From NCBI RefSeq assembly GCF_010667685.1, contig NZ_WHZW01000001.1:124001-188000 (forward strand): DNA of 64,000 bases, given 5' to 3'. The translations under genes were made by a program, and so were the position numbers. Positions 31,086 to 52,268 of the stretch are shown here, in pieces. The notes beneath the pieces are model-generated. The model was not told the origin of the DNA. It worked only from the letters and a program-made list of their open reading frames with translations, and searched no databases. This DNA comes from Bifidobacterium aerophilum. GTDB lineage: Bacteria > Actinomycetota > Actinomycetes > Actinomycetales > Bifidobacteriaceae. Positions within the stretch are counted from its first letter, which is position 1; each line of letters starts with the position of its first letter.

Positions 31086-32483
31086 TCACCTCGCCCGTTC
31101 GCCGTTGACGACGATGTCCGGTTCGGCGTAGGTCGTGCAGCCGTCGAGCAGCACGGCGGGGCGTTCGTCGGGACGGATCGACCGCAGCCGCACCCGCGCA
31201 AGGTCGAGGCCGTGCACGTTGCGCAGGTCCATGAACGCGGTGCGCGACCAGTCCGGCCAGTAGTTCTCGCTGGACTTGACGTCCGGCTCGACGAGCTTGT
31301 CGACCAGCCGCGGATAGTCGTTCAGCGGCGGAATGTCAGACGTCTTCACTCCCCCGATGAACGTGTACCGCAGCCCGTCGATCGTCACGTCCTCGATCGG
31401 ATGCCCGTCCGCTGCGTCGAAGCGGATGCCGGCGAACTTCGGTTCGCCCATCACGTCGTCGGTGAAGCGACGGTGCACGTTCGCCATCTCCTCGCTGTCG
31501 GTCGCGGTGACGTTGCTGATCGAGATCCGCGCCATCGTGCCGATCTCGGGCATGTGGTCCAGTTCGACCGACGTGCCGTAGTCGTCGAGTTCGAAACGGT
31601 TGTTGAGCACGGCGAAGATCGGGCGGGTCACGTCGCGCATGACGATGTCGCTGATCGAGATGTCGCTGATCGCGCCGCCTTCGGTGCATTCGAGCTTGAT
31701 GCCCTCGCGCCAGACATGATCGAGCGTGCAGTTCGAGATCGTCACGTCGTAGATGTCGCCGATGGATTTGAGTCCGATGCGGATGCCCGCGCACACGCCG
31801 GAGAACTCGCAGTTGGTGACGTGGATGTCATGCACCGGGTAGTCCTTGCTGCTGGACTGCAGGCAGAAGTTGTCGTCGGTGCCGCGCACGTAGCAGTCGG
31901 AGACGAACACGTGCGCGCTGCCGTCGAAGTCAAGGCCGTCGCCGTTGTAGCGCTTGTCGTTCTTGATGTCGAGGCCGCGGATCCAGATGTATTCGCTGTC
32001 GAGGAACGCGGTCGTCCATGCGGCGGATTCGTAGAGGCGCAGGTTTTCGACGTGCACGTTATGGCAGCGCAGCATGCGGATCATCATCGGCCGGTAGATG
32101 GAGCCCTCGTTCGGGAAGGCGGTCGCGTTGCCGTCGATCGTGCCGCGGCCGACGAGCGCGAAGTCGTGCGCGTCTTCGGCATAGATGAAGCACCGGTCGA
32201 GCGCGGTCTCGTTGCGGTAGCGGTTGCGGTGCACGTCGGCAGCGTAGTCGTTGATGTCCGGGCTGGCGAGCAGGGTCGCCGATTCGGTGATCTCCAGCGT
32301 GACGTTCGACTTGAGCCTGATGATGCCGGCGAGGAACGTGCCGCCGGCGAGGACGACGCGGCCGCCGCCGTTCGCCGCGGCCCGGTCGATCGCGGCCTGG
32401 ATCGCCGGGCCGTCGTTGGTCATGCCGTCGGCGACGGCTCCGAAATCACGGACGTTGTAGATATGTTGGGTATTGATCGTCAT
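31086..32483 (-). CDS. GH28-fold right-handed beta-helix protein (pectinase-like)
   Basis: A 465-residue protein without signal peptide, so intracellular. The start NVRDFGAVADGMTNDGPAIQ and the GGGRVVLAGGTFLAG block are typical of GH28 polygalacturonase-like beta-helices. Two acidic clusters are retained: NGDGLDF near residue 178 and GTDDNFCL near 201. The usual Gly-His-Gly reads GVCAGIRIG and the usual RIK reads GIKLECTEGG, so the normal His and Arg are absent. It could be a divergent exo-hydrolase or a lyase-like enzyme. AAAGGATCGG supports the start. It follows the MFS transporter gene and probably acts on its cargo. Confidence 0.78.
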   Translation of the reverse strand: MTINTQHIYNVRDFGAVADGMTNDGPAIQAAIDRAAANGGGRVVLAGGTFLAGIIRLKSNVTLEITESATLLASPDINDYAADVHRNRYRNETALDRCFIYAEDAHDFALVGRGTIDGNATAFPNEGSIYRPMMIRMLRCHNVHVENLRLYESAAWTTAFLDSEYIWIRGLDIKNDKRYNGDGLDFDGSAHVFVSDCYVRGTDDNFCLQSSSKDYPVHDIHVTNCEFSGVCAGIRIGLKSIGDIYDVTISNCTLDHVWREGIKLECTEGGAISDISISDIVMRDVTRPIFAVLNNRFELDDYGTSVELDHMPEIGTMARISISNVTATDSEEMANVHRRFTDDVMGEPKFAGIRFDAADGHPIEDVTIDGLRYTFIGGVKTSDIPPLNDYPRLVDKLVEPDVKSSENYWPDWSRTAFMDLRNVHGLDLARVRLRSIRPDERPAVLLDGCTTYAEPDIVVNGERAR

Positions 32484-32589
32484 GGTCCGATCCTTTGCGA
32501 TGTGTCGTAGGCGCCGTGCGGCCGGATCATCGCCGGGAGCATGATCCGCACCACATCGGCAAACGTTTTTCAGTACAGGAAGCATGGAA

Positions 32590-32630: not shown

Positions 32631-33899
32631 TCACTTGATGCGCTTGATGCCGAAGATCGAGATCGCGGCGAGGGTGAGCACGATGAAGCCCATCGGGAAC
32701 AGGCCCGCGTAGCCGAACGCCTTGAGCACGGCGAACGCGAGCAGCGGGGCAAGCAGCTGGCCGACGGTGCCGGCCGCGTTGAGGAACGCGAGATCCTTGG
32801 CGGCCGTTTCGTTGTTCGGCAGCACGGAGGTCATGAGCGCCTGGTCGAGGGAGATGAAGATGCCGCCGCCGAGGCCGGAGAACGCGACGTAGATCGTGTA
32901 CATGAGCGGGTTCGGGATGAAGAACGGCAGCCAGCACGGGATGCCGACCGCGAACACGGCGAGTGCGCACGGGATCTTGATGGTCTTGAAGAAGTCGGCG
33001 AGCGGGCCGGCGATGGCGGCGGAGACGACGGCGAGGATGAGGTTGAGCAGGGCCATGAAGCTCATCCACCTCGCGGCGTCCGCGTCGGACTGGTGCATGT
33101 AGTCGGTCAGCGTGAACAGACGGTAGGTGCCGATGCCGCCGGGCATCATGAACATGAAGCGGGCGAATGCGGCGAACCAGTAGTCGCGGCCGGCGTGCAT
33201 CGGAGGCAGGAAGTCCTTGAACTGGGAGACGTCGAACTTGCCGCGCGGCTTGTCGAGGTTGGACGGCTCCCTGCACACGACGACGGCGATGAACAGCAGG
33301 ATGTCGGAGATGACGAGCAGCACGAACACGCCGGTCGGCACGTTGGTGATGAACAGCGAGCCGAGCGACTGGGCGCCGTTGAGGCCGATCTGGGTGGCGA
33401 CGCCGAAGATGGCGGATGCCGAGCCGCGGTACTTGACCGGGATCAGGTCGGGCATCCACGCCATGCCGGCGGACATGATCGCGTTGTAGCAGACCACGTA
33501 GAAGAACCAGGCGAGCATGACGACGACGATGTTGGAACTCAGCGCGAAGACGAGCAGACCGATGGTGCCGAAGATCGCGCCGAGGATGATCCACGGCGAG
33601 CGGCCTCCCCAGCGGGTGCGGGTCATGTCGGACAGGGCGCCGAAGATGACGCCGGCGAAGATCGCGATGAACATGGCGATCGTGGTGCTCTGGGCGAGCA
33701 GGTCGGCCTTCTGGTCGGGGGCCACGGCGGCGAGCTTCGCCGGCAGCAGCGCGGCGGAGATGCCGAAGAACGGCGCATACCAGCCGATGGTGGCGAAGAA
33801 CTGCGCCATCGACGGGCGCCAGGGGAATTTGCCCGTGTCTTTCGGGCCTTGGACGGCGGCTTGCGTCGCATCCATCGTGTCGCTTATTGCAGAGCTCAT
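32631..33899 (-). CDS. MFS sugar transporter (GPH/SLC45-like)
   Basis: A 422-residue, 12-helix carrier. The loop motif SDMTRTRWGGRSPW after the second helix and the overall layout suit the glycoside/sucrose-like (GPH or SLC45) cation symporters. AAAGGAGCGGACTG precedes ATG 33899. The operator GGTAAGCGCTTTCC lies 106 bp upstream and links it to the regulon. The next gene is the GH28-like protein, so a pectin- or uronide-derived oligosaccharide is a reasonable but unproven cargo. Confidence 0.87.
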   Translation of the reverse strand: MSSAISDTMDATQAAVQGPKDTGKFPWRPSMAQFFATIGWYAPFFGISAALLPAKLAAVAPDQKADLLAQSTTIAMFIAIFAGVIFGALSDMTRTRWGGRSPWIILGAIFGTIGLLVFALSSNIVVVMLAWFFYVVCYNAIMSAGMAWMPDLIPVKYRGSASAIFGVATQIGLNGAQSLGSLFITNVPTGVFVLLVISDILLFIAVVVCREPSNLDKPRGKFDVSQFKDFLPPMHAGRDYWFAAFARFMFMMPGGIGTYRLFTLTDYMHQSDADAARWMSFMALLNLILAVVSAAIAGPLADFFKTIKIPCALAVFAVGIPCWLPFFIPNPLMYTIYVAFSGLGGGIFISLDQALMTSVLPNNETAAKDLAFLNAAGTVGQLLAPLLAFAVLKAFGYAGLFPMGFIVLTLAAISIFGIKRIK

Positions 33900-34004
33900 C
33901 AGTCCGCTCCTTTGCTGTACGGATTGTTCGGTCGTTGTTGACGCCCATCTCCCGGTTCCGCCATCGGCTTTCCGGTCGATGCCATGCACTTATCGAATCA
34001 TCTC

Positions 34005-34018
34005 GGTAAGCGCTTTCC
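34005..34018. promoter_or_regulatory. Regulon operator GGTAAGCGCTTTCC
   Basis: Exact reverse complement of GGAAAGCGCTTACC at 45517. It lies in the 387-bp divergent gap 33900-34286 upstream of the MFS gene. The gap also holds the unrelated palindrome at 34041 and otherwise shows no gene. Confidence 0.78.
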
Positions 34019-36594: not shown

Positions 36595-36614
36595 ATTGGA
36601 AAGCGTTTTCCAAT
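36595..36614. promoter_or_regulatory. Regulon operator ATTGGAAAGCGTTTTCCAAT
   Basis: 20-bp near-perfect palindrome. On the minus strand it contains the -35 box (TTGGAA) and most of the 17-bp spacer of the alpha/beta hydrolase promoter, a classic repression position. It lies in the 347-bp gap 36492-36838, which otherwise shows no gene. Confidence 0.8.
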
Positions 36615-36838: not shown

Positions 36839-37915
36839 ATGGGATATATCCTGTATTTCAGCCGGCCGTTCATGCTGGCGGTCGCGCTGTGGCCGTTCGT
36901 GTCGGCCGTGCTCACGGTGCCGGTGCTGGCTCTGCTGTATCACCGCTACAACCGCATCCGTTTTTCGCAGGCGCTCGTCGCGTACGGCACGGTGCTGTAC
37001 GCGATCGGCCTGCTGTGCTTCACGCTGTACCCGATGCCGGAGGATCCGGTCGCCTACTGCGCCGCGCATCATCTGGCGCCGCAGCTCAACCCGCTGCAGT
37101 TCGTCGGCGACATCCGCACCGACGGCCTGGCCGCGATCATGCAGCTCGCCCTGAACGTCGTGTTCTTCCTGCCGCTCGGCTTCATCATGGGTCGCGTGTT
37201 CCGCTGGCCTCTCGCCGCGGCGATCCCGGTCGGCTTCGCGACGAGCCTGATGATCGAAACACTGCAATTGACCGGATTCCTCGGCTTCTACCCGTGCTCG
37301 TACCGGCTGTTCGACGTGGACGATCTCATCACGAACACGCTGGGCGCCGTGCTCGGCTACGCCGCGGCGAAACTGTTCGACCGGCTCGTGCCGCCGCGCG
37401 CGAACGATCTGACGACGGTGACGCAGCCGGGATTCCTACGCCGCTGCATCACGTACGCGATCGATCTGACGGTGGTCACGGCCGTGGCGATGCCGACGAC
37501 CATGCTCGCCACGGTGCTGTACGACATGTTCGTGGTGCGCGACATCGCGATATGGCAGTCGATTCCGGCCGTCGGCCACGTGTTCGGCAACGACGTCACG
37601 TTCTCCGACATCGCGACGCTGGGCGCGCTGCTCGTCTTCGAACTGCTCGTGCCGTGGATGCGCGGCGGACGCACGCTCGGCGGCGGGTTCACGCACATGA
37701 CCTGCGAGACGCGGCCACGGTCCGGCTGGCGGCGAATGCTGTTCTACGCGGCACGCACCGCGGTGTTCGCGATCGTCGTGTTCGCACGCCTGATCCCGTT
37801 GTCCGGCCTGTTCACGTTCGTGCTGCTGATCTTCTACTGGGTCAAGAAGCAGATGCCCTACGACCTGCTGCCGGCGGACGTTCAATCATCGACGTCGAAC
37901 ATGGCAACCATATAG
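36839..37915 (+). CDS. VanZ-RDD fusion membrane protein
   Basis: A 358-residue membrane protein joining two families. The N-terminal VanZ-like half has four to five helices with LNPLQFVGDIRTDGLAAIMQ, LALNVVFFLPLGFIMGRVFR and the acidic DVDDLITNTLGAVLGY block. The C-terminal RDD half begins GFLRRCITYAIDLTVVTAVA. VanZ relatives affect teicoplanin resistance and envelope stress in some bacteria, and RDD proteins are mostly of unknown function. GAGGGAAACACC supports the start. Its 3' end overlaps the convergent ATPase gene by 34 bp. Confidence 0.85.
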   Translation: MGYILYFSRPFMLAVALWPFVSAVLTVPVLALLYHRYNRIRFSQALVAYGTVLYAIGLLCFTLYPMPEDPVAYCAAHHLAPQLNPLQFVGDIRTDGLAAIMQLALNVVFFLPLGFIMGRVFRWPLAAAIPVGFATSLMIETLQLTGFLGFYPCSYRLFDVDDLITNTLGAVLGYAAAKLFDRLVPPRANDLTTVTQPGFLRRCITYAIDLTVVTAVAMPTTMLATVLYDMFVVRDIAIWQSIPAVGHVFGNDVTFSDIATLGALLVFELLVPWMRGGRTLGGGFTHMTCETRPRSGWRRMLFYAARTAVFAIVVFARLIPLSGLFTFVLLIFYWVKKQMPYDLLPADVQSSTSNMATI

Positions 37916-39201
37916 ATCGGCAGGTATGTCACCCGTCCTACGATCTCAACGTTCGTTTCCGCCAGCACGTATGCCTCGTCTATGCCGCAGTTCGGCGAAT
38001 CCAGCGCATGATCGAGCGACGCATGGGTCCGATATGACGATCCGGATTTGATCTCGAACACCAGCACTCGCCCGTCGGCCGTTTCGGTTACGAAATCAAG
38101 TTCCCCCATACGTTTGCTGGCGCAGTAGTATGTGGTGAATCCATGCGAGTTGAGTTCCTGCGCCACCGCGTTCTCATACACGCCGCCGACATTCATGTTG
38201 GTTTTGCCGTCAAGCAGATCGATGGATGCGCGCTTGATGAACGTACCAGTCAGCAGTCCGACATCGGAATAGAACAGCTTGAACCGACTGTCGTTCTTCG
38301 AGATGAGCAACGGATGCCTTGGCTCCGTCGCATTATACGTGGCGATCGCCACGTCCGCATTGATCAGCCATAGGAATTCGTCCGTCACCTGATCGAACCG
38401 CTTGACGTTCTCGATCGAGCTGAACTTGAACCGTTTGCTGGTGCCGGTCAGTTCGCTGGGAACAAGGTCGTAGATGTTCTGGATGACCAGCCGGTTCTCC
38501 TTAGGCGCATACTTGGCGATGTCCCGTTTGTATACGCGGATGATTTCAGACTGAGACACGCGCACCTGATCGATGGTGCCGTTCTTCAGGAACGCGTTGA
38601 CCGCATCGGGCATGCCGCCAACCAATAAATAGCGGTGGAACAGCTTCAGCAACCGTTCATGAATGAAATCCGCCACCGGCGTGCGATCGGCGAATGCCTT
38701 GCGCGCCATCCGCCATGCTTCTTCCGGCAGACCGTTAGCCCAGCAGAACTCCTCGAAATCCAGCGGGAACATCTCAACCTGTGTGAGATATCCCCCAGGC
38801 AACGCGTCCACGCCTTCCAGTTTCACCCCGAGCAGCGAGCCGGACAGAATGAAGTCATACTCGCCCTTGTCGATCAGCAATTTGATGTGCTCCATCACGT
38901 TCGGGCATTCCTGAATCTCATCAAGGAATATGGCCGTCTCGTGAGGCACCAGCGGAATGCTGGCGGCCACGGAAATGCGAAGCATCAGATCGTCTGCATC
39001 CGTCGCCGCGGCGAACGACGAGCGTGCCGCACTGTCATCGGCAAGATTGATCTCAACTCGGCTGCGGTAATGCGACCGCATGAATTCGCGCACCAGATAC
39101 GTCTTGCCGATCTGACGAGCGCCCGTGACCAGCAACGCCTGCTTCGACTTGTCCCGTCTCCAGGACTCGAAGCGTTCGTACGCCTTGCGTTTCAATGCCA
39201 T
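37882..39201 (-). CDS. AAA-type ATPase with DUF4143 C-terminus (paralogue)
   Basis: A 439-residue paralogue of the protein at 29622-30980. Walker A is again GARQIGKT, Walker B is AIFLDEIQECP, and the DUF4143 part has YYCASKRMGELDFVTETADG and VLVFEIKSGSSYRTH with the D-E-x-K pattern. The two share order and motifs but differ widely in sequence, so they are old paralogues or separate acquisitions. GGAAGG lies before the ATG. The gene is preceded by unusually A/T-rich DNA. Its last 34 bp overlap the VanZ-RDD gene in a convergent arrangement. Confidence 0.88.
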   Translation of the reverse strand: MALKRKAYERFESWRRDKSKQALLVTGARQIGKTYLVREFMRSHYRSRVEINLADDSAARSSFAAATDADDLMLRISVAASIPLVPHETAIFLDEIQECPNVMEHIKLLIDKGEYDFILSGSLLGVKLEGVDALPGGYLTQVEMFPLDFEEFCWANGLPEEAWRMARKAFADRTPVADFIHERLLKLFHRYLLVGGMPDAVNAFLKNGTIDQVRVSQSEIIRVYKRDIAKYAPKENRLVIQNIYDLVPSELTGTSKRFKFSSIENVKRFDQVTDEFLWLINADVAIATYNATEPRHPLLISKNDSRFKLFYSDVGLLTGTFIKRASIDLLDGKTNMNVGGVYENAVAQELNSHGFTTYYCASKRMGELDFVTETADGRVLVFEIKSGSSYRTHASLDHALDSPNCGIDEAYVLAETNVEIVGRVTYLPIYMVAMFDVDD

Positions 39202-39574: not shown

Positions 39575-40462
39575 TCACAGCTGGGATTCGGCGGGCAGGG
39601 CCTCGATGGCCTTGCGGGCGGCGACGAGGGCCTCCTCGAGCGGCTCGACCTGCGGATACCAGCGGCGCTCCCATTCCAGGGACAGCGGGCCGGTGTAGCC
39701 GCCGTCCTTCAGGAGCTTGCAGCACTCGGCCAGCGGCACGCGGCCGGTGCCCTGCAAGACCGGGGTCTGGTCGCCCGGGAACGCGCAGTCCTTGATCTGC
39801 ACAAGGCCGCGACCACCGACCAGATACGGCTTCAGGTATTCGAACGTGGTGGCCGGCGCCTCGCCGACGCGCCACGGGTGGGCCAGATCCCAGATGGAAC
39901 CGGCCTGGTTGCCCGGCGCGATCTTATCGAGGTAATAGTGGATGATCGCGTTGCGCTCGCCGTTGGTGTGGCTGTCGTGCGTTTCGATGAGCGGCTGCAC
40001 GCCGAGCTTGTCCGCGGTCGGCAGGGCCTTGGCGATGATCTCGGCGCCGCGCTCGGACACGCCGGCGAGGTTCATGCCCTTGGGCAGCACCATGCCGGGC
40101 AGACGGTCCGGATCCCAGCTCGGCTCGAGCGGCGCGGTCGGGAAGACGCGGACGAACTTCGCGCCGAGCACGGACGCCATGTGCAGGCAGTGTTCGAGGC
40201 TTTCGACCAGTTCGTCCTCGTCGCGGTCGGTGTTGCACACCTGCACGCGCGAGTCGACGCCGAAGATGGTCACGCCGGCCTTCTCGGCAAGTTCGTCGCG
40301 CATGGCCTTGAGCTCGTCGTCCGTGGAAGCCATCGTGAACTTCATCTCGTCACCGACGGCGACTTCGATCCGCTTGACGCCGGTCGCCACAAACGTATGA
40401 GCGAGTTCGTCCATCGTGTCGTACGGCGCGCCGAGGGTCGACGCGGCCAGTTCCCATGTCAT
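39575..40462 (-). CDS. TIM-barrel sugar isomerase/epimerase
   Basis: A 295-residue protein of the xylose isomerase-like (AP endonuclease 2) superfamily. Metal ligands expected of the fold are seen: Glu in PLIETHDSHTNG, Asp/His in IWDLAHPW, the KD of GLVQIKDCAF and Glu in GPLSLEWERRW. Relatives isomerise or epimerise sugars, sugar acids, inosose or hydroxypyruvate. The exact substrate is unknown. GAAAGGAACATG supports the start. It is the last gene of the glycerate kinase/alpha-galactosidase/xylosidase operon, 14 bp after the xylosidase gene. Confidence 0.85.
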   Translation of the reverse strand: MTWELAASTLGAPYDTMDELAHTFVATGVKRIEVAVGDEMKFTMASTDDELKAMRDELAEKAGVTIFGVDSRVQVCNTDRDEDELVESLEHCLHMASVLGAKFVRVFPTAPLEPSWDPDRLPGMVLPKGMNLAGVSERGAEIIAKALPTADKLGVQPLIETHDSHTNGERNAIIHYYLDKIAPGNQAGSIWDLAHPWRVGEAPATTFEYLKPYLVGGRGLVQIKDCAFPGDQTPVLQGTGRVPLAECCKLLKDGGYTGPLSLEWERRWYPQVEPLEEALVAARKAIEALPAESQL

Positions 40463-40476
40463 GATTCATGTTCCTT

Positions 40477-42138
40477 TCAGTGTTGTTCCTGGTAGTCGAA
40501 GTATTGGAAGTCGGCGTGCGACCGCTTGGCGTCCATGTCCTGGGCGCACAGGCCGACCATGCCGCCGGTGAACGCGCAGCCCTTGATCGTGCGCTCGACG
40601 TAGTCGTCGCTGATGTGGTCGGCCGGCTGGGCGCCGCCGATCGCATGCCATACGGCGTTGTCGGCGTACATGTTCGGTCCCTGCGCGAAGCGGAAGTGCG
40701 CCTTATCGCGCCGCACCTCCACGCGGATGCGCACCGGGCCATCCTCAAGCGTGATCGCCTCGGAACCGTATTCGAGATCCTCGTGATCGCAGCGCAGCAC
40801 CTGGATGATGCGCCTGTCGGTGCCCTCGGTGTCGAAGGAGACATACGCGTAGATCCAGTTCTGCGTGTCGTAATACAGAATCAGCCCGGCCATCTGCTGA
40901 TAGTTGGTCGGATCGAAATCGAGCACGGTCTCGGCGTCGAAGTCGTACGCCTCCCAACGCCTGGCGAACAGCACCTGATGATGCTGCGATCGCAGCGACT
41001 GGTCACCGTACAGGCGCAGCCAGCCGGGGCGTGCGGTAAGCGAATAGTCCTTCTCCGCATCCAGCGCGCCACGCAGGGTCTTCAGGCTCGGCGGAATGGC
41101 CGGATCGGTCACGGACGTGAGCGGCGTGCAAGCCTGCGCGACGCGGTCCACCTCGAATTCGACGCGTTCGGAGCGGTCGGTCCGCTGCACGACGCCCTGC
41201 GCGATGGCGGGGGCCGGAACCTTGAGGTCGGGGCTGATCGTGTTGTTGATCAGTCGCGGCCAGCCGTCCTCGGTCCAGTAGATCTTCTGGATCGCGGTTT
41301 CGCGGCCGAGCGTGCAGTTGCCGCGCTCGGTCAGGGGACGGCCACAGATCTGCGTGACGTACCATTCGTCGCCGATCTCCAGGAAGCAGCAGTGACCGGA
41401 CTTCTGCAGCGGGTTGTTCGGCTCGTCACGCGTGGTCATCAGCGGCGTGTACGGGCTGTCCTCAAACGGGCCTTCGAGCGAACGGGCGCGGGCCACGGTG
41501 GCGGCGTGCATGTAGCCGGTGCCGCCGGCCGCGCACAGCAGGTAGTACCAGCCGTCGCGTTTCAGAATCTGCGGTCCTTCGCATACGCCGAGCTTGGTGC
41601 CCTTGTAGAAGTGCTTGCGTTCGCCGATGAGTTTCATGGTCGTCGGATCGAATTCCTGGATGACGGTGCCGGCGAACATCTGATGGCCCGGACGGTAGTC
41701 GTAGAGCATGTTGAGGAACCATTTGCGGCCGTCGTCATCGTGGAAGATGGCCGGGTCGAAGCCGGAGGCGGTCAGGAAGTGCGGCTCGCTCCACGGGCCG
41801 GTGATGCTCGGCGCGGTGATGACGTAGTTGAGCGTGTCCTTGAACGGCGCGTAGGTTTTCACATCGGTGTAGACGAGCCAGAACTTGCCGTCGGCGTAGC
41901 TCAGGTGCGGCGCCCACAGGGAACCGGAGTCATAGTTGCCGTGCAGGTCGACCTGCGATTCGCGGTTGACGGGCGAGGCGATCCATTCCCAGTTGACGAG
42001 GTCCTTGGAATGGTAGATGTCGATGCCCGGCCACCATTCGAACGTGCTGGTGGCGATGTAGTAGTCGTCGCCGACGCGTAGCGCGCTCGAGTCGGGGTGA
42101 AAGCCAGGAAGGATCGGGTTGGTGATCATCGTGGTCAT
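40477..42138 (-). CDS. GH43 beta-xylosidase (XynB-like)
   Basis: A 553-residue intracellular enzyme. The five-bladed propeller starts NPILPGFHPDSSALRVGDDY, with the catalytic base Asp in GFHPD. GFDPAIFHDDDG supplies the pKa-modulating Asp, and GVCEGPQILKRDGWYYLL the general acid Glu. The C-terminal 200 residues form the beta-sandwich found in GH43_11-type beta-xylosidases. It releases xylose or related sugars from non-reducing ends in characterised relatives, and some also act on arabinosides. AAAGGAGCC supports the first ATG. It is third in the operon, 20 bp after the alpha-galactosidase gene. Confidence 0.92.
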   Translation of the reverse strand: MTTMITNPILPGFHPDSSALRVGDDYYIATSTFEWWPGIDIYHSKDLVNWEWIASPVNRESQVDLHGNYDSGSLWAPHLSYADGKFWLVYTDVKTYAPFKDTLNYVITAPSITGPWSEPHFLTASGFDPAIFHDDDGRKWFLNMLYDYRPGHQMFAGTVIQEFDPTTMKLIGERKHFYKGTKLGVCEGPQILKRDGWYYLLCAAGGTGYMHAATVARARSLEGPFEDSPYTPLMTTRDEPNNPLQKSGHCCFLEIGDEWYVTQICGRPLTERGNCTLGRETAIQKIYWTEDGWPRLINNTISPDLKVPAPAIAQGVVQRTDRSERVEFEVDRVAQACTPLTSVTDPAIPPSLKTLRGALDAEKDYSLTARPGWLRLYGDQSLRSQHHQVLFARRWEAYDFDAETVLDFDPTNYQQMAGLILYYDTQNWIYAYVSFDTEGTDRRIIQVLRCDHEDLEYGSEAITLEDGPVRIRVEVRRDKAHFRFAQGPNMYADNAVWHAIGGAQPADHISDDYVERTIKGCAFTGGMVGLCAQDMDAKRSHADFQYFDYQEQH

Positions 42139-42158
42139 TGGTTTGCGGCTCCTTTGCG

Positions 42159-44294
42159 TTATTTCGTGTTCAGCAGTACGGCGACGCCGTCGAAGTCGGC
42201 GAGGCCGGAGACGGTGAGCATGCCGTCGTCCAGCGTGACGGTGACGCCGTCGCGGTAGAACGTGCGGGCGATGCGCGCGGCGGCGTCATCATTGCCGTCG
42301 ATCGGCACGGTGATCGTCGACGGCGCATCGTGGAACGTGTGCAGCACAACGAGCGTGCGGCCGTCGGCCGCAGTGCCGGTTTCGCCGTCGCGCACGATGG
42401 CCTGCCAGCCGCTCGGATGGGCGTAGCTGCCGATCCGCGGCCCGTACCAGTGGGATTCGCCGCGGTCGATGACGGGCGCGGCCGCGTGGTAGAACGCGAT
42501 GCCGTCGCGGATGATCTCGTTCTTGCGACCGGCGAACGCGGTCGCGTCGCCGCTGAAGCACAGGCGGCCGAGCAGTCCGGAGCAGATCTGGTAGTACAGC
42601 TTGTCGTCCGGCTCCTCGTCGCGTACGACGGCCCAGATCTGCGACTGGCGCGGCAGGATCATGCGGTGCATGTTCGCGGCGACGACCGGGATGTAGTCGC
42701 ATTCGTGCGCGTCGGAGAAGCTGGCCATCGCGCCGATGGTCATGAAGCTCTGGACCAGCCGGTGGCCGCCGGACGCGCAGAGCTCGATCATGAGATCGGG
42801 CAGTTCGGCGCGAATGCGGCGGAAGAACGCCTGCGACGCCTGGATCTGGTCGTACAGGCCCTCCCCCAGCGACGCGTGCGGGTCGCCCGGCGTCTCGCAG
42901 CCGATGCCGATCGTGTCGTTGTAGTCGACCTTCATGTAGTCGAAGCCGTTGTCCTTGAGGAAGTCGATGACCCTGTGCGCCAGATACTCCTGTACCTCGG
43001 GGTTGCGCATGTCCCACCAGCGGCGGTTGCCCGAGGTGATCGGCAGGCCGTCGCGCTTCAGAAGCCATTCGGACTTGTCGAAGCAGTCCGGCTCCTCACG
43101 TCCGGCGATCTCGAACTCGAACCAGATGCCGGCCTTCAATCCGGCCTCGTGAATGCGGTCGACCACCGGTTTCATGCCGTGCGGGAACGCGGTTTCGCTG
43201 ACCTCCCATTTGCCGAACTTGCTGGCCGACTCGAACGCCTGGTCGTCGAACCATCCGGCGTCGATCACGAAGTATTCCACGCCGAGCGCCTTGACCGCGT
43301 CGAGCTGTTCGATGACGCTTTTCTCGCTCGGGCATCCCCACGTCGAGCAGAATTCGTTGAAGATCACCGGCAGCCTGTCCTCGCATGCGGGCACGTCGAG
43401 GTCCTTGCGCACGTTGCCGGCCACGGCCTGCGCGGCCTCGTCCACGCCGCCGACGACGGCCGTCACGACCGCGTACGGCGCGTCAAAGCGCTCGCCGGGC
43501 CGTACCGCGTGCGTCCACTGGCCGAATTCGCGGTCGGCGATGCCGCCTGACAGGCTCAGCCCGTCGTCGCGGCGGTACGCTTCGATCTGCCAGCTGGACG
43601 CGTGCGTGGTCGCCGCCGCCCAAGTCACGCCGGCGCGTCGGTCGGTCACGCCGACGAACGGCGCCCATTCGCGCACGGGAAAGCTGCCGATCGAGCCGAA
43701 GCGCACGGAGTTCGCGCTGTACTTCTGCCAGCTCGGTTCGAGTTCGAGGTCCTCGACCGGCTGGGAGAGCACGCGGCCTTCGGCGCTCCACGTGCTGCGC
43801 AGCCGGTGCAGGGTCAGGTTTTCGGGGTCAAGTCCGGTGGCGTACGGCGAGATGGAGCCGAGCGTGAAGCTGGAAAGCATTTCGAATGTGACCGGCTCGG
43901 CAGCGTCGTTGACGACGGCCGTGCGGATTTCGGCGGCGCGGCTTGCCGGGGTCATGGTGAGCGTGTGCTCGTAGTGCCAGCCGCGGTCGTCGACAATGGT
44001 TGTCATGACGGTGACGTCGCCGGCCGTCTCGTCACGCCGCACGACGGGCTCGCCGTAGGTCATGTGTTTGGTGACGGTGGTCGCGTTGCGCATGGTGCGG
44101 CCTTGGCTGAAGCCGAACGGATAGTCGTCGCCGATGATCTTGGCTTGGACGAGCGGTTCGGCGGCGCAGTCGTCGCGCACGATGTCTGCGACCTTGTCGG
44201 CCGGAGACAGCACGAGTTCGACGACGCCGGTCTCGTCGCGGCGGTATACGGCGGCGAGGTCACCGCAGGCGACGGTTGCCAATGTGGTTCGCAT
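42159..44294 (-). CDS. GH36 alpha-galactosidase
   Basis: A 711-residue enzyme. The N-terminal beta-supersandwich precedes the catalytic barrel with VEYFVIDAGWFDD, GFDYMKVDYND (nucleophile Asp in KVDYN) and MIELCASGGHR followed by SDAHE (acid/base Asp). These fit GH36 alpha-galactosidases, which remove alpha-galactosyl groups from raffinose-type or galactomannan oligosaccharides. There is no signal peptide. AAGGACC lies before the ATG. It is second in the operon, 53 bp after glycerate kinase, so its substrate must be imported. Confidence 0.92.
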   Translation of the reverse strand: MRTTLATVACGDLAAVYRRDETGVVELVLSPADKVADIVRDDCAAEPLVQAKIIGDDYPFGFSQGRTMRNATTVTKHMTYGEPVVRRDETAGDVTVMTTIVDDRGWHYEHTLTMTPASRAAEIRTAVVNDAAEPVTFEMLSSFTLGSISPYATGLDPENLTLHRLRSTWSAEGRVLSQPVEDLELEPSWQKYSANSVRFGSIGSFPVREWAPFVGVTDRRAGVTWAAATTHASSWQIEAYRRDDGLSLSGGIADREFGQWTHAVRPGERFDAPYAVVTAVVGGVDEAAQAVAGNVRKDLDVPACEDRLPVIFNEFCSTWGCPSEKSVIEQLDAVKALGVEYFVIDAGWFDDQAFESASKFGKWEVSETAFPHGMKPVVDRIHEAGLKAGIWFEFEIAGREEPDCFDKSEWLLKRDGLPITSGNRRWWDMRNPEVQEYLAHRVIDFLKDNGFDYMKVDYNDTIGIGCETPGDPHASLGEGLYDQIQASQAFFRRIRAELPDLMIELCASGGHRLVQSFMTIGAMASFSDAHECDYIPVVAANMHRMILPRQSQIWAVVRDEEPDDKLYYQICSGLLGRLCFSGDATAFAGRKNEIIRDGIAFYHAAAPVIDRGESHWYGPRIGSYAHPSGWQAIVRDGETGTAADGRTLVVLHTFHDAPSTITVPIDGNDDAAARIARTFYRDGVTVTLDDGMLTVSGLADFDGVAVLLNTK

Positions 44295-44347
44295 GATTCG
44301 AGGTCCTTGATGAACGGTTATCGATGAACGTTATCCCAAATGGATGG

Positions 44348-45484
44348 TTATCTCGCGATGTTCAGCAGACGGGTGACCTGTTCGGCGGTGCGGGTGACGT
44401 TCGCGGCGGCGGCGCGCAGCAGTTCGTCGAGGCCGGCCGCGCCGGGCGCGATGCCGAAGACCGCGTCGATGCCGATCTCGTGGAGTTCCCCGATGCCGTC
44501 GCCGATATGTCCGGCGATGGCGATGACCGGCTTGCCGTGCCGTTTGGCGACGGCGGCCACGCCGGCCGGGGTCTTGCCGAATTTGGTCTGGAAGTCGATC
44601 GATCCTTCGCCGGTGAACACGACGTCGGCCCATTGCGCGGCCTCGTCCAGTCCCGTACGGTCGATCACCAGGTCGATGCCCGGCTTGAATTCGGCATGCA
44701 GGAAGGCGAGCAGGGCCGCGCCGATGCCGCCGGCCGCTCCTCCGCCCGGCAATGCGGCGACGTCCATGTTCAGCTGGCGGCCCGCGATCTCGGCGAAGCG
44801 GGTCAGCGCGCGGTCGAGCAACGCGACGTCGCTTGCGGAGGCGCCTTTCTGCGGGCCGAACACGGCGCTGGCGCCGTTCGGACCGGTCAGCGGGTTGGTC
44901 ACGTCGCACGCGGCGATGATCTCCACGCCGTTCAGCCGTTCGTCCAGTCCGCTCGTGTCGATCGTCTCCAGTTCGGCGAGCGCGGCGCCGCCGGGCGCGA
45001 GGTCATGGCCGTCCGCGTCGAGCAGTCGCGCGCCGAGCGCTTTGAGGATGCCGGCTCCGGCGTCGTTGGTGGCGCTGCCGCCGAGTCCGACGATGACGGT
45101 CGTCGCGCCGGAGTCAAGCGCGGCCCGGATGAGTTCGCCGGTGCCGTATGAGGTGGCGATCTTCGGGTTGCGTTCGTCGGGGGCCAGCAATGCCAGGCCG
45201 CTGGCCTCGGCGGTTTCCACGACCGCGGTCGTACCGTCGCCGAGCATCGCGTATCGGGCGGCGATCGGGCGGCCGAGCGGATCGTGCGCGATGGTGCGAC
45301 GCATCGTGCCACCGGTCGCGTCGGCCAATGCCTGTGCCGTGCCTTCGCCGCCGTCCGCCATCGGGACCATGCGGATCTCGGCGTCCGGGTCGGCCTGTCG
45401 TATTCCCTGTGCCATCGCCTGTGCGGCCTCGTTGGCGGTCAGGCTCTCCTTGAAGGAGTCGGGAGCGCATACATATCGCGTCAT
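44348..45484 (-). CDS. glxK: Glycerate kinase (GlxK/GarK family)
   Basis: A 378-residue kinase that phosphorylates D-glycerate, usually to 2-phosphoglycerate in this family. Diagnostic blocks are CAPDSFKESLTANEAAQAMA, MVPMADGGEGTAQAL, GLGGSATNDAGAGIL and LPGGGAAGGIGAAL. It leads the operon with the alpha-galactosidase, xylosidase and isomerase genes, an unusual association that hints at glycerate as an intermediate. The start at 45484 has only a weak TAGGCTGG site. The operator GGAAAGCGCTTACC stands 32 bp upstream. Confidence 0.93.
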   Translation of the reverse strand: MTRYVCAPDSFKESLTANEAAQAMAQGIRQADPDAEIRMVPMADGGEGTAQALADATGGTMRRTIAHDPLGRPIAARYAMLGDGTTAVVETAEASGLALLAPDERNPKIATSYGTGELIRAALDSGATTVIVGLGGSATNDAGAGILKALGARLLDADGHDLAPGGAALAELETIDTSGLDERLNGVEIIAACDVTNPLTGPNGASAVFGPQKGASASDVALLDRALTRFAEIAGRQLNMDVAALPGGGAAGGIGAALLAFLHAEFKPGIDLVIDRTGLDEAAQWADVVFTGEGSIDFQTKFGKTPAGVAAVAKRHGKPVIAIAGHIGDGIGELHEIGIDAVFGIAPGAAGLDELLRAAAANVTRTAEQVTRLLNIAR

Positions 45485-45516
45485 GGCTACCAGCCTACCG
45501 CACGACACGCCGAATC

Positions 45517-45530
45517 GGAAAGCGCTTACC
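45517..45530. promoter_or_regulatory. Regulon operator GGAAAGCGCTTACC
   Basis: In the 152-bp divergent gap, nearest to glycerate kinase. It matches 34005 (reverse complement) and 27734 exactly over 14 bp. Confidence 0.8.
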
Positions 45531-45583
45531 ATTGTTTTACCCGACCGAGATATCGGAGACCGTACAGAAACTTACGTTATACT

Positions 45584-45595
45584 GGTAAACGCTTA
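45584..45595. promoter_or_regulatory. Operator GGTAAACGCTTA next to the LacI promoter
   Basis: Directly downstream of a TATACT -10 (45578-45583) and 41 bp before the LacI start. Its position suggests autoregulation by that protein and dual control of the divergent operon. Confidence 0.68.
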
Positions 45596-45636
45596 AAACT
45601 GTTTTCCAAAGAAGTGCAACGAAGGACAGTGACATC

Positions 45637-46734
45637 GTGGCAGAGCAGAACGACAAGGCGGCCTCCCCCGCAACGCTGATGGATGTGGCCGCCAAGGCCG
45701 GGGTTTCCATCGCCACCGCATCCCGCGTGCTCAACGGCAGCACGCGCAAGGTGCGCAACGACTCGTACGTGAAGGTCATGGAGGCCGCGAAGAAGCTCAA
45801 TTACCGCCCGAACGCGTACGCGCAGGCCGTGGCGAAGGGCACCGCGCCGAACATCGTGCTGCTCGTCTCCGACATCTCCGACCCGTATTTCGCATCCGTG
45901 TCGCAGGGCGTGGTGAAGGCGGCCGGCGAGCAGGGCATCTCCGTCACGATCGGCGTGGCCGCAGGTCCCAAGGAGGAGCTGGAGGCCGTGCGCAAGGCGA
46001 CGGCGACACGTCCGCGCGGCATCATCATTTCGGAAAGCGAATATGTCGACGCGCCGGAACGGGCCGCGCTCGAGGCGGAGCTCAGGCAGTACGAGGCCGC
46101 CGGAGGTCGCGCCGTGTTCATCCTGAACCGCAACCTGCCGTTCCCCGCCGTGGACGTGGCCAACGAGGTCGGCGCGCGGGCGATCGCGAAACTCGTGGTC
46201 GACTCCGGATACACGCGTCCCGCGATCCTCAAGGGAGACGACAACCACCGTTCGTCGCGTGAACGGCTCGCCGGCGTGATGGACGTGCTCGGCAAGGCCG
46301 GCATTGCGGTCGACCCGGCGGCGATCGCCAATGGACGATTCAGCCGCACCGAGGGCTACGCGGCCGTGATGCAGATGGCACGTACCGGACTGCTGACCGC
46401 CGGCGACCACGCGGCATACGACGGCGCCGGCGTGGACGTCATCATCGCCCTGAACGACGTGATGGGCATCGGCGCGATGACCGCGCTGCGCGCCAACGGC
46501 ATCGAACCCGGCAAGGACGTGGGCGTGACCGGCTTCGGCGACATCCCCTACTCCGCGGACGTGCACCCGTCCCTGACCACCGTGCACCTGCCGCTGGCCG
46601 AAATGGGACAGGCCGCGGTCGACTGCGTCATGGCCGACCGGGACGAATCCGAATCCGCGACGCCGGCGAATCGCCTGATCTTCGTGCAGAGCGCGCCTGA
46701 CATCGTGCTGCGCGAATCCCTGCCGCGGCGTTAG
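45637..46734 (+). CDS. LacI-family regulator, candidate regulon master
   Basis: A 365-residue repressor starting with GTG after GAAGGACAGTGACATC. The helix-turn-helix is LMDVAAKAGVSIATASRVLN. The effector domain ends VGVTGFGDIPYSADVHPSLT. It is divergent from the glycerate kinase operon, with two copies of the regulon operator between them. It is therefore the best candidate for the protein that binds the GGAAAGCG-type sites at 27.7, 34.0, 36.6 and 47.95 kb as well. A global regulator encoded elsewhere cannot be excluded. Confidence 0.92.
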   Translation: MAEQNDKAASPATLMDVAAKAGVSIATASRVLNGSTRKVRNDSYVKVMEAAKKLNYRPNAYAQAVAKGTAPNIVLLVSDISDPYFASVSQGVVKAAGEQGISVTIGVAAGPKEELEAVRKATATRPRGIIISESEYVDAPERAALEAELRQYEAAGGRAVFILNRNLPFPAVDVANEVGARAIAKLVVDSGYTRPAILKGDDNHRSSRERLAGVMDVLGKAGIAVDPAAIANGRFSRTEGYAAVMQMARTGLLTAGDHAAYDGAGVDVIIALNDVMGIGAMTALRANGIEPGKDVGVTGFGDIPYSADVHPSLTTVHLPLAEMGQAAVDCVMADRDESESATPANRLIFVQSAPDIVLRESLPRR

Positions 46735-46820
46735 GCGAGGACATCCGAGATTTCCGATCTCGCGGCCGCAACTGAGTCCATATCACGACTTCGTCTCCCG
46801 CTTACGGTTGTCCCGACAAC

Positions 46821-46878
46821 GGAAAACGGCCGTAACCGAATCGCGGATCATCATCCGCACTCGGTTACGGCCGTTTCC
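46821..46878. terminator. Hairpin between convergent genes, GGCCGTAAC repeat family
   Basis: GGAAAACGGCCGTAACCGA pairs with TCGGTTACGGCCGTTTCC, with one bulged A, continued by GCGGAT/ATCCGC. It lies between the LacI and dehydrogenase genes. A diverged half-site, CTTACGGTTGTCC, is at 46801. Confidence 0.75.
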
Positions 46879-46925
46879 GGTCTGTCACGCAAACGACGAC
46901 GGCCGACCGTTCGGCCCGACCGGAC

Positions 46926-47933
46926 TCACTCACCGAATTCGAGCGGCTCGCCCTTGATCATATGGGTCAGCTCGTTGACCACGTTCTCTCCCATGCCCTG
47001 CAGCTCGGTGCCTTCGGAACCGGCGATGTGCGGGGTGAGAATCACGTTCGGCATGTCCCACAGCGGGGAATCGGCGGACAGCGGCTCGTCCGGGTCGGTC
47101 ACGTCGAGGATCGCGTTGATGCGGCCGGTCTTCAGCTCGGCGATCATCGCGTCCGCATCCACCACGGCGCCGCGGGCGGAGTTGATGAACCACGCGCCGT
47201 CCTTCATCATCTTGAAGTACTTCGCGCCGATCATGCCCTGCGTCGCCGGCAGGCTCGGCGTATGCAGGGAGACGATGTCGGACTCGCGGAACACGGTTTC
47301 AAGATCGGCCTTCTTGGCGCCCAGGGAAACGGCCTCCTCCTCGCTCATCGAACGGGATTCGGCGAGCACGTTCAGACGGTAGCCCTTGAGCAGACCGAGC
47401 AGGTGGCGCGCGATGCGGGAGCCGGCGGTCACCAGGCCCACGGTCTTCTCGTAGTTGCCGGCGGTCGGGAACTCGACCTCGCGGTTGATGTACTCGCGAC
47501 GCTCGCGGTAGATGCGCTCGGCACGGAAGAAGTCCTTGTTGGCCATGAGGATCATCGCCATGCAGTATTCGGCGACCGGGATGCCGTTGACGTAGCCGGA
47601 GTTGGACATCTGGATGCCGCGCTGCTTGACGGCCTCGAGCGCCTCCGGGGTGAGCAGTCGCCACGCGTTGCCGGCCGCGGCCGCGATGCCCTTGAGGTTC
47701 GGCATCTTGGCCAGCGTCTCGGCGTCGATGCGCGCGTCCGGGCCCCAGCCGGAGAAGATGTAGTCGGCGGCGGCGAGACGGTCGTCGAGGCCTTCGACGT
47801 GGAAATCGGTGATGACGTTGCGGTCGACGTTGGCTACGGCGTTCAGACGGTCCCACTGCGTGTCGTTCATGAGCTTGTTCACCAGCTCCGGCGGCTGCAT
47901 GGTGAGAATGACGTTCGGCTTGGACTCACTCAT
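46926..47933 (-). CDS. D-2-hydroxyacid dehydrogenase family protein
   Basis: A 335-residue NAD(P)-dependent oxidoreductase. Catalytic residues of the family are present: Arg in INSARGAVVDADAM, Glu in DPDEPLSADSPL and His in LTPHIAGSEG. The cofactor loop reads KTVGLVTAGSRIARHLLGLL in place of the usual G-x-G-x-x-G, so cofactor binding may differ. Relatives reduce hydroxypyruvate, glyoxylate or sugar-derived 2-oxoacids. AAGGAGTATCACGT precedes ATG 47933. The operator GGAAAGCGTTTTCC lies 18 bp upstream of the start, between a TATAGT -10 and the ribosome-binding site. Confidence 0.88.
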   Translation of the reverse strand: MSESKPNVILTMQPPELVNKLMNDTQWDRLNAVANVDRNVITDFHVEGLDDRLAAADYIFSGWGPDARIDAETLAKMPNLKGIAAAAGNAWRLLTPEALEAVKQRGIQMSNSGYVNGIPVAEYCMAMILMANKDFFRAERIYRERREYINREVEFPTAGNYEKTVGLVTAGSRIARHLLGLLKGYRLNVLAESRSMSEEEAVSLGAKKADLETVFRESDIVSLHTPSLPATQGMIGAKYFKMMKDGAWFINSARGAVVDADAMIAELKTGRINAILDVTDPDEPLSADSPLWDMPNVILTPHIAGSEGTELQGMGENVVNELTHMIKGEPLEFGE

Positions 47934-47951
47934 ACGTGATACTCCTTCATT

Positions 47952-47965
47952 GGAAAGCGTTTTCC
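47952..47965. promoter_or_regulatory. Regulon operator GGAAAGCGTTTTCC
   Basis: Downstream of the minus-strand -10 TATAGT (47977-47982), at the expected transcript start. It shares the 14-bp core of the site before the alpha/beta hydrolase. A second inverted repeat, GACTAT-N8-ATAGTC (47976-47995), overlaps the -10. Confidence 0.78.
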
Positions 47966-48679: not shown

Positions 48680-49018
48680 GGCTCCGACCCTACACGACGA
48701 TACGTACACTCGTACACGAATTCGGGGCGGGAACCATCGCCGCATAACGCGCGCATTCTCCGGTCCGACCCAAAAGAAGCCGACACCCGCCCTCGTGACC
48801 AAGAAAGAGGGGGTGGATTCAAAGGAGGGGGCGCGATGTTTTCTTTCCGCCAGCAGAGACCGTAGATGCCCAGCATTGAAATGATCGGCATGGCGCATGA
48901 GCGGGCGACATAATATAACGTACATGCCCCCTAAAAGTCGGGGTCATAAAGCCCTTGGGTCGACGTGGACGCATGCGCGGCGTCGACCCTTTGCACGAAT
49001 CGCATGAGAAAGGCGAAC
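48680..49018. promoter_or_regulatory. Divergent regulatory region, 339 bp
   Basis: Contains the TetR promoter, a very strong AAAGGAGGGG site before a nine-codon frame (48836-48865, MFSFRQQRP), a possible -10 TAATAT at 48911-48916, the small hairpin CCCC/GGGG at 48927-48942, and GGGTCGACG/CGTCGACCC at 48957-48989 followed by CTTT. The nine-codon frame could be a leader peptide, but it lies upstream of the TAATAT box, so its link to the CAP gene is doubtful. Confidence 0.4.
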
Positions 49019-52091: not shown

Positions 52092-52268
52092 CCGCGGAAT
52101 CGCTGAATAACACATGCGGAGACCGCCGTCCGAAACCGAAGGCGTGCTGTGCATTCCCGCGGAATCAGCGAGTAACGCGTGTGTCCTCTAGGCGCACCGA
52201 GGGAAGACGTACGAAGGGTACGTTGACCGAGGAGCAACGACGAGGACGCTCCGTTATTCGCTGATTCC
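52092..52268. repeat. Diverged repeats of the gmk 3' end
   Basis: CGGAATCAGCGAATAACGG spans the end of the gmk-type gene on the minus strand. Related copies, CGGAATCGCTGAATAACAC near 52100 and CGGAATCAGCGAGTAACGCG from 52160, lie on the plus strand in the otherwise empty gap 51911-52253. The 52160 copy and the gene end can pair as an inverted repeat, including GTGTCC/GAGGAC flanks, so it may act as a terminator. I see no gene in this gap. Confidence 0.5.

What the first reader, a model, noticed from the sequence alone, without database searches (positions are those of the whole stretch)
39575..47965. Glycosidase regulon that includes isomerase, 2-hydroxyacid dehydrogenase and glycerate kinase: a candidate new catabolic route
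Seen: one operon encodes glycerate kinase, GH36 alpha-galactosidase, GH43 beta-xylosidase and a TIM-barrel isomerase. A dehydrogenase gene 2.4 kb away carries the same operator core as the operon. Known: glycerate kinase, hydroxyacid dehydrogenase and hydroxypyruvate isomerase-like enzymes interconvert tartronate semialdehyde, hydroxypyruvate, glycerate and 2-phosphoglycerate. Bifidobacteria normally use the fructose-6-phosphate phosphoketolase shunt. Inference: a sugar or sugar acid freed by these glycosidases may be split to a C3 oxoacid, reduced by the dehydrogenase and phosphorylated to enter lower glycolysis.
Basis: partly seen in the sequence, partly recalled or inferred. Interest (0 to 1): 0.75.

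Follow-up and report, generated by a model that had tools for sequence, protein, structure and literature searches.

The report
Orphan sugar-acid pathway regulon in Bifidobacterium
Genes for an isomerase, a reductase, a glycerate kinase and plant-sugar-cutting enzymes in a Bifidobacterium share a switch with three further enzymes of unknown role just outside the window, which together look like an uncharacterised route for burning an acidic plant sugar.

Summary
Observation confirmed: the GK-GH36-GH43-ISO operon and a dehydrogenase gene (DH) 2.4 kb away carry one operator. It marks a regulon: 11 perfect copies in 3.0 Mb, six within 54 kb. One, outside the window, precedes a Gfo/Idh-DUF993-second TIM isomerase operon (the 'trio'); another precedes MFS-GH28. 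DH abuts ISO in 4 other Bifidobacteriaceae loci (L033, L108-L110) and 7 of 63 further actinobacterial loci. DUF993 is in 7 of 151 Bifidobacteriaceae genomes, all among the 15 with ISO (p 2e-8). It has a DHDPS-aldolase fold. A uronate-dehydratase-like gene (DUF2264) lies near ISO in 11 of the 63, which hints at uronic acids. Best reading: an uncharacterised sugar-acid route, perhaps for galacturonate, leaving through a C3 oxoacid and D-glycerate. Regulon and linkage are strong; all chemistry is inferred. Against it: ISO misses the hydroxypyruvate-isomerase model; two ISO+ genomes show no glycerate kinase; a 2-ketoaldonate reductase role for DH is nearly as likely. New variant of a known kind.

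The parts
39575..40462 (-). ISO: xylose-isomerase-like TIM barrel protein, last gene of the operon
   Evidence: PF01261; AlphaFold model pLDDT 96.5; matches in 15 of 151 Bifidobacteriaceae genomes and in other Actinobacteria
40477..42138 (-). GH43 (beta-xylosidase type with C-terminal GH43_C2)
   Evidence: Pfam; PDB 1yrz xylan beta-1,4-xylosidase E 1.5e-151
42159..44294 (-). GH36-like (melibiase) glycosidase, remote from solved members
   Evidence: PF02065 110 bits; best PDB 3mi6 E 8.6e-28; NF053652 beta-L-arabinopyranosidase 155 of 1100 bits needed
44348..45484 (-). GK: glycerate 2-kinase family (probable true start at Met17 of the long ORF 44348-45532)
   Evidence: PF02595 497 bits, TIGR00045 484 bits (168 needed); operator overlaps the start of the long ORF
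45517..45530 (-). operator GGTAAGCGCTTTCC between GK and the divergent LacI
   Evidence: perfect copy at the same place in 9 of 9 relatives that hold the stretch
45637..46734 (+). LacI-family regulator divergent from the operon (probable regulator)
   Evidence: PF00356 and Peripla_BP_3; ortholog at the same place in relatives
46926..47933 (-). DH: D-isomer-type 2-hydroxyacid dehydrogenase with altered glycine motif, R254/E283/H302 kept
   Evidence: PF02826; tree
47952..47965 (-). operator GGAAAACGCTTTCC, 18 bp upstream of the DH start codon
   Evidence: at most one mismatch upstream of window-type DH in 5 of 6 loci
31086..32585 (-). GH28 (rhamnogalacturonidase/polygalacturonase-like), probable regulon member behind the MFS gene
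   Evidence: PF00295; NF049898 rhamnogalacturonidase 166 of 500 bits needed
32631..33989 (-). MFS transporter, first gene before GH28
   Evidence: PF07690; operator at 34005-34018 just upstream
34005..34018 (.). operator GGTAAGCGCTTTCC upstream of MFS-GH28
   Evidence: a perfect site also lies at the GH28 start in L018, L019, L021
35670..36491 (-). alpha/beta hydrolase (esterase-like), probable regulon member
   Evidence: PF12697; operator at 36598-36611 upstream
36598..36611 (.). operator GGAAAGCGTTTTCC upstream of the alpha/beta hydrolase

Best explanation
The operon and DH belong to a LacI-type regulon for a uronate-containing plant oligosaccharide (pectic or gum type). It also holds MFS-GH28, a GH39 and, outside the window at G000:C1:114945-118302, a Gfo/Idh oxidoreductase - DUF993 - second TIM isomerase operon. 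Oligosaccharides are imported and trimmed by GH28, GH36, GH43 and GH39. The acidic sugar released, most likely D-galacturonate, is rearranged by the Gfo/Idh enzyme and the second TIM isomerase and cleaved by DUF993, a DHDPS-type aldolase, to give a C3 oxoacid (tartronate semialdehyde or hydroxypyruvate) plus a C3 fragment. ISO and DH then interconvert and reduce the oxoacid to D-glycerate, and GK makes 2-phosphoglycerate, which enters lower glycolysis. Shown: gene content, shared operators, linkage and co-occurrence across genomes, and the aldolase fold of DUF993. Inferred: binding by this LacI, substrate, reaction order and every chemical step. I put about 0.9 on one regulon, 0.85 on ISO and DH acting in one pathway, 0.65 on a uronate or other sugar acid, and 0.3 on the whole chain as written.
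Against: ISO gets no NCBIfam hit at E 0.001. G150 and G018 keep DH-ISO but have no GK match at E 1e-20 and no MOFRL-type glycerate kinase; G018 is 92% complete. DH-ISO also persists without a detected trio (L110, L033, L034-L036, L041, L084), so ISO-DH need not lie downstream of DUF993; and 16 of 20 sampled trio loci show no ISO. GK occurs in 96 of 151 family genomes and near ISO in only 2 of 63 non-bifido loci. The own genome has a second, separate uronate route (UxaC-B with mannitol-dehydrogenase-type and enolase-type genes and its own LacI). The UxaC exclusion rests on 15 related genomes and the p values ignore ancestry. No operator was found in L026, L027, L029-L031, L033, L109, L110, and L108 has only a one-mismatch site far from these genes. 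Some perfect operators serve other genes. None of 35 linked DHs shows the canonical glycine motif. No expression or enzyme data exist.
Confidence: 0.3

Rival explanations
1. ISO and DH act on a six-carbon keto sugar acid: ISO isomerises or epimerises a hexulosonate and DH reduces the 2-keto group to an aldonate (a 2-ketoaldonate reductase role), which after phosphorylation enters the pentose phosphate and phosphoketolase routes. Glycerate kinase does an unrelated salvage job.
For: The second-best PDB match of DH is a probable 2-ketogluconate reductase, E 1.8e-26 (the best, E 4.4e-29, is a phosphoglycerate dehydrogenase). A. niger GluC, of the same dehydrogenase family, is a 2-keto-L-gulonate reductase essential for glucuronate use (PMC4870679, passages). 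L. suebicus ferments galacturonate via 6-phosphogluconate and phosphoketolase (PMC6978723, abstract). DH-ISO stands without trio in L110 and L033, whose genomes show no GK.
Against: GK heads the ISO operon in the window and in L018, L020, L022-L025 and L100, and follows the trio in L067. No aldonate kinase was seen among the regulon genes annotated here.
Confidence: 0.27
2. The trio degrades one sugar (for example galacturonate or a branched or minor pectin sugar) and ISO-DH-GK another sugar released by the same glycan; they share a regulator only because both sugars come from one polymer.
For: No ISO near the trio in 16 of 20 sampled loci. DH-ISO without a detected trio in L033, L034-L036, L041, L084 and L110. 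In the own genome the trio is in a separate operon about 50 kb away.
Against: DUF993 in Bifidobacteriaceae is found only in ISO+ genomes. The trio directly follows DH-ISO in L108 and L109, and both lie in one run in L067 and L087.
Confidence: 0.27
3. ISO and DH replace KduI and KduD for 5-keto-4-deoxyuronate made from unsaturated uronides.
For: DUF2264 lies next to DH and/or ISO in L047, L055, L062, L067, L071, L079 and L084; a PL8 lyase gene lies beside the ISO relative of L075.
Against: The own genome has no KduI match and no GH88/105 match above cut-off, so no source of this sugar is seen there. KduD reduces C5, which a 2-hydroxyacid dehydrogenase would not be expected to do (recalled chemistry).
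Confidence: 0.08
4. Ordinary glycosidase operon with unrelated housekeeping genes; the shared operator is a generic LacI or carbon-control site and no pathway is implied.
For: Some perfect sites lie next to unrelated genes (two on C26 beside dnaN, one on C5 beside a GH125). GK is common.
Against: Six of 11 sites in 54 kb, conserved sites in relatives, and DH-ISO adjacency in lineages where no operator was found or sought.
Confidence: 0.08

Closest known systems
Glyoxylate/glycerate route (Gcl - hydroxypyruvate isomerase - reductase - glycerate kinase)
   Same: A TIM-barrel isomerase, an oxoacid reductase and a glycerate kinase in one unit (general scheme recalled; PMC12694930 seen only as a search listing)
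   Different: ISO does not reach the hydroxypyruvate isomerase model; DH is of the D-2-hydroxyacid type, not the tartronate semialdehyde reductase type; glycosidases and an aldolase-fold protein are present; a carboligase was not searched for
Canonical hexuronate isomerase pathway (UxaC, UxaB/UxuB, UxaA/UxuA, KDG)
   Same: Handles uronates; the trio is also an isomerase-fold, an oxidoreductase and a third enzyme, and never coincides with full-score UxaC among the 15 ISO+ genomes
   Different: UxaC is not in this regulon; the own genome keeps a divergent UxaC operon elsewhere with another LacI
Lactobacillus suebicus galacturonate pathway into phosphoketolase (PMC6978723, abstract)
   Same: A phosphoketolase organism with a non-standard galacturonate route
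Gfo/Idh + xylose-isomerase-like pairs of levoglucosan and C-glycoside catabolism (recalled)
   Same: Pairing of Gfo/Idh with AP_endonuc_2 proteins; weak NCBIfam hit of the L108 Gfo to levoglucosan dehydrogenase (57 of 650 bits)
   Different: Adds the DHDPS-fold DUF993; equivalog cut-offs not met
SMc04130 and SMc04132 of Sinorhizobium meliloti (PDB 3qc0/3ju2, 4dnh)
   Same: SMc04130 matches the second TIM isomerase and SMc04132 matches DUF993
   Different: PDB names give no specific function; ISO, DH and GK were not looked for there

Membership tests
Hydroxypyruvate isomerase (Hyi) | match to NCBIfam TIGR03234 | tested here: not met
   no NCBIfam family at E 0.001 for ISO
Hydroxypyruvate isomerase (Hyi) | xylose-isomerase-like TIM barrel | tested here: met
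Hydroxypyruvate isomerase (Hyi) | activity on hydroxypyruvate | not testable with these tools
   needs an assay
Xylose-isomerase-like metal-dependent epimerases | four acidic/His metal ligands | tested here: inconclusive
   E160, D192, H195, Q222 and E263 are invariant in the 29 sequences aligned; which of them are ligands is recalled, not mapped
[quoted passage not shown]
   154 bits against a cut-off of 25
[quoted passage not shown]
   R254, E283 and H302 kept in at least 97% of 35 aligned sequences; that they are the triad rests on recalled spacing
[quoted passage not shown]
   GLVTAGSRIA in the window and no canonical motif in any of the 35 rows printed; own paralogs L177, L179, L180 are canonical, L176 is not, L178 was not caught by the motif search
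Glycerate 2-kinase (PF02595, TIGR00045) | score over curated cut-off | tested here: met
   TIGR00045 484 bits against 168
GH36 alpha-galactosidase | Melibiase domain over cut-off | tested here: met
   PF02065 110 bits against 27
GH36 beta-L-arabinopyranosidase (NF053652) | equivalog cut-off | tested here: not met
   155 of 1100 bits
GH43 beta-xylosidase | full-length match to solved beta-xylosidases | tested here: met
   1yrz E 1.5e-151, residues 2-551 of 553
DHDPS-type class I aldolase superfamily (for DUF993) | DHDPS TIM-barrel fold | tested here: met
DHDPS-type class I aldolase superfamily (for DUF993) | Schiff-base lysine on barrel strand 6 | tested here: inconclusive
   K240 is invariant in 19 sequences and lies on strand 236-242 of the model, by my count the sixth barrel strand; it was not superposed on the DHDPS lysine
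Kdu pathway | KduI and GH88/105 in the genome | tested here: not met
   own genome: no KduI match, no GH88/105 match over cut-off (one weak match, E 8.8e-4)
Canonical hexuronate isomerase pathway | UxaC family in the regulon | tested here: not met
   the only UxaC match in the own genome is at C3:118084 beside another LacI, with no operator of at most one mismatch in the 13 kb fetched; a one-mismatch site lies about 7 kb away at C3:126385

The most novel reading that the evidence does not exclude
A new hexuronate pathway that bypasses KDG: a Gfo/Idh enzyme and a TIM isomerase prepare galacturonate for retro-aldol cleavage by DUF993 into a C3 fragment and a C3 oxoacid, which ISO, DH and glycerate kinase channel into 2-phosphoglycerate. 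This would give some bifidobacteria a uronate route outside the bifid shunt, and would assign functions to three protein families that have solved structures but no specific function in their PDB names.
Probability: 0.2. Interest if true: 0.8.

Novelty: new variant of a known kind. Interest (0 to 1): 0.6.

Why it matters
The Gfo/Idh-DUF993-isomerase trio was complete in 20 of 20 DUF993 loci examined, and DUF993 is in 28 of 118 genomes sampled from the class, the own genome included. The nearest PDB entries of the three families carry no specific function in their names. Linking them to GH28, a uronate-dehydratase family, ISO, DH and glycerate kinase gives a short, testable substrate list. If right, it adds a carbon route to bifidobacteria, whose uronate use is little described (recalled). 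Several named relatives come from New World monkeys (recalled); marmosets feed heavily on tree gums (abstract start of PMC8406136), which would fit such a niche, but the host of this genome is unknown to me.

Tried and rejected
KduI/KduD stand-in: rejected for the own genome. Alternative glycerate kinase (MOFRL) in genomes lacking GK: none in the 15 ISO+ genomes. Glycerate kinase as the diagnostic gene: rejected, 96 of 151 family genomes have a match. Assigning ISO by fold: uninformative, because Art22, IolI, UlaE and xylose isomerases score within a few Z units.

Literature, held PMC library only: no paper holds DUF993 or PF06187. 'Glycerate kinase' + 'Bifidobacterium' + 'hydroxypyruvate' gave 2 papers, on CO2-fixation pathways by their titles (listing only). 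'3-oxo-isoapionate'/'apionate' gave 2 papers not opened. Of SMc04130-SMc04135, two papers hold any term; SMc04132 and SMc04133 stand in one table of PMC12542648 (one passage), and the other paper was not opened. Searches were used as listings, apart from the papers cited with passages, a section or an abstract. Subscription journals are not covered.

A first ISO gene tree mixed strands and is void; one search replaces it. On it trio-bearing and full-UxaC-bearing genomes are interleaved in two groups (G000/G124/G149, support 85/93; G147/G101/G150, support 100/100), so the exclusion is not one ancestral event, but only 2 of 12 inner branches are well supported.

The gene calls on relatives are my own heuristic and missed genes (for example DUF993 in several Nonomuraea loci), so counts use tblastn at E 1e-12. 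The labels perm6 and perm10 are guesses that no family search tested. LacI counts (19 of 20) are not specific, as LacI is a large family. The 20 DUF993 loci were picked from 27 non-own positives, leaving out 7. Cut before counts: G009 and G043 (intermediate UxaC scores) from the two UxaC classes.

Full report
The window lies in a genome of 3.0 Mb (G000, window = C1:124001-188000) of the genus Bifidobacterium: its nearest named relatives by ISO are B. ramosum, B. biavatii and B. amazonense at 96% identity. The genome itself is unnamed.

Observation. The four genes GK, GH36, GH43 and ISO lie head to tail on the minus strand with gaps of 53, 20 and 14 bp. A LacI gene diverges from GK, and a 2-hydroxyacid dehydrogenase (DH) follows on the minus strand. 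Operators GGTAAGCGCTTTCC (before GK) and GGAAAACGCTTTCC (18 bp before the DH start codon) stand 2.4 kb apart. The GK long ORF starts on the operator, so Met17 is the likelier start.

Regulon. GGDAARCGYTTHCC has 11 perfect places genome-wide; with one mismatch allowed there are 24 against 6 for the reversed control. Six of the 11 lie between C1:118355 and C1:171965 (binomial p 4e-7 for five of the other ten). In window terms these are MFS-GH28 (34005), an alpha/beta hydrolase (36598), the GK operon (45517), DH (47952), one site beside a DUF6198 membrane protein gene (27733), and one outside the window at C1:118355. That last site lies between a GH39 gene (L119:14473-16320) and an operon of Gfo/Idh oxidoreductase, DUF993 and a second xylose-isomerase-like protein (L119:10945-14302; families named on the L108 orthologs, and DUF993 also). 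In relatives a perfect site stands before Gfo in the 4 loci where the trio has its own promoter (L023, L121, L122, L123), and between LacI and the operon in 9 of 9 loci holding that stretch. Before window-type DH it is present with at most one mismatch in 5 of 6 loci counting the window; L022 lacks it. L026, L027, L029-L031, L033, L109 and L110 show no site at all. Other perfect sites lie beside dnaN and a GH125 gene.

Linkage beyond the operator. ISO was found in 15 of 151 sampled Bifidobacteriaceae genomes, and a genome-collection scan kept the best 80 of 508 matches (79 loci, 16 of them Bifidobacteriaceae). In L108-L110 (two of them contigs of strains ESL0745 and ESL0704 by length; bee isolates as I recall) DH-ISO is a gene pair between an HflX gene and an L-lactate dehydrogenase gene. 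In L108 and L109 the trio follows it; in L110 the trio is missing. Of the 63 non-bifido loci, DH abuts ISO in 7 and lies upstream on the same strand within 4.5 kb in 4 more; all three trio genes are in the fetched stretch in 21, at least two in 23; DUF2264 in 11; GK in 2. In a separate DUF993-centred sample (28 of 118 class genomes positive, own included; 20 of the other 27 fetched) the trio is complete in 20 of 20, ISO is present in 4 and GK in 2. L067 (Nesterenkonia) carries DH, DUF2264, ISO, a FAD lactone-oxidase-like gene, Gfo, DUF993, isomerase and GK in one run behind an ABC solute-binding protein gene.

Co-occurrence. DUF993 is in 7 of 151 Bifidobacteriaceae genomes, all ISO+ (7 of 15 against 0 of 136, p 2e-8). 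UxaC comes in two score classes: full (576-634 bits, 31 genomes) and divergent (224-265 bits, and 134 in G042; 28 genomes); two intermediate genomes (G009, G043) were left out of both. The divergent class marks 14 of 15 ISO+ genomes against 14 of 136 (p 3e-11). In the own genome it sits with a mannitol-dehydrogenase-type and an enolase-type gene beside another LacI. Full UxaC occurs in 6 of the 8 ISO+ genomes without DUF993 and in 0 of the 7 with it (p 0.007). Two of those six loci were looked into: they show an altronate-dehydratase-like gene (L185 annotated, L186 by similarity) and a gene similar to the own mannitol-dehydrogenase-type one. These p values ignore shared ancestry.

Substrate. 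The linked CAZymes in bifidobacteria are GH28, GH36, GH43 and GH39, with a PF05426 alginate-lyase-family protein in L026. Elsewhere annotated neighbours include DUF2264, PL8, GH42, GH35 and GH20. DUF2264 of L084 matches beta-D-glucuronic acid dehydratase structures, and also one entry named beta-galactosidase; the family was reassigned from GH154 in PMC12269599 (passages). The theme is uronic acids, though GH42, GH35, GH20, GH36 and GH43 do not act on them. PMC8406136 (section 9 read) reports pectin islands in a marmoset Bifidobacterium, and its text has no 'glycerate'. The review PMC6353982 has no 'tartronate', 'glycerate' or 'hydroxypyruvate' (find).

Mechanism. The order 'isomerise/oxidise, aldol cleavage, C3 oxoacid, glycerate, 2-phosphoglycerate' uses each enzyme class in its usual chemistry. 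For example, retro-aldol cleavage of a 5-ketohexonate would give dihydroxyacetone and tartronate semialdehyde; this is inference from chemistry, not a result. The best rival makes DH a 2-ketoaldonate reductase, as in the fungal GluC. Two ISO+DH genomes without any detected glycerate kinase, and DH-ISO without the trio, weigh against a strictly linear chain in all species.

Verdict. The gene set is real, shares an operator and is conserved. It is a plausible uncharacterised sugar-acid pathway. Its chemistry is not settled by sequence.

Noticed in passing
52254-53891: One frame matches an orotidine-5-phosphate decarboxylase domain (30-278) and a guanylate kinase domain (355-539): an apparent pyrF-gmk fusion next to carbamoyl-phosphate synthase.
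   Followed up: no
29622-30980 and 37882-39201: Two AAA_14/DUF4143 ATPase genes flank the MFS-GH28 region; the match in L020 is 98% identical to the second.
   Followed up: no
27733-27746: A perfect operator stands upstream of a DUF6198 membrane protein gene (27024-27677), not obviously a sugar gene.
   Followed up: no
48965-51910: 981-aa frame with a CAP domain and below-cut-off SEC10/PgrA surface-exclusion and SMC matches.
   Followed up: no
L190 (G000:C3:112000-125000): Divergent UxaC operon with mannitol-dehydrogenase-type and enolase-type genes, a LacI and a nearby GH30-family gene; the divergent UxaC is strongly associated with ISO.
   Followed up: partly
L026:6580-7824: In L026, L027 and L029-L031 an N-acylglucosamine 2-epimerase-family gene (annotated in L026) lies right after DH; a nitroreductase-like gene lies before ISO.
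   Followed up: no
L045:10798-14712 and Nonomuraea relatives: LacI-ISO is followed by a phosphodiesterase-like and a PPDK_N/PEP-utiliser gene (annotated in L045), with similar genes in many Nonomuraea loci.
   Followed up: no
L077, L081: More distant ISO relatives sit with another Gfo/Idh (c25) and a PF00701 DHDPS-family gene (c66), annotated in L077: a second version of the oxidoreductase-isomerase-aldolase trio.
   Followed up: no
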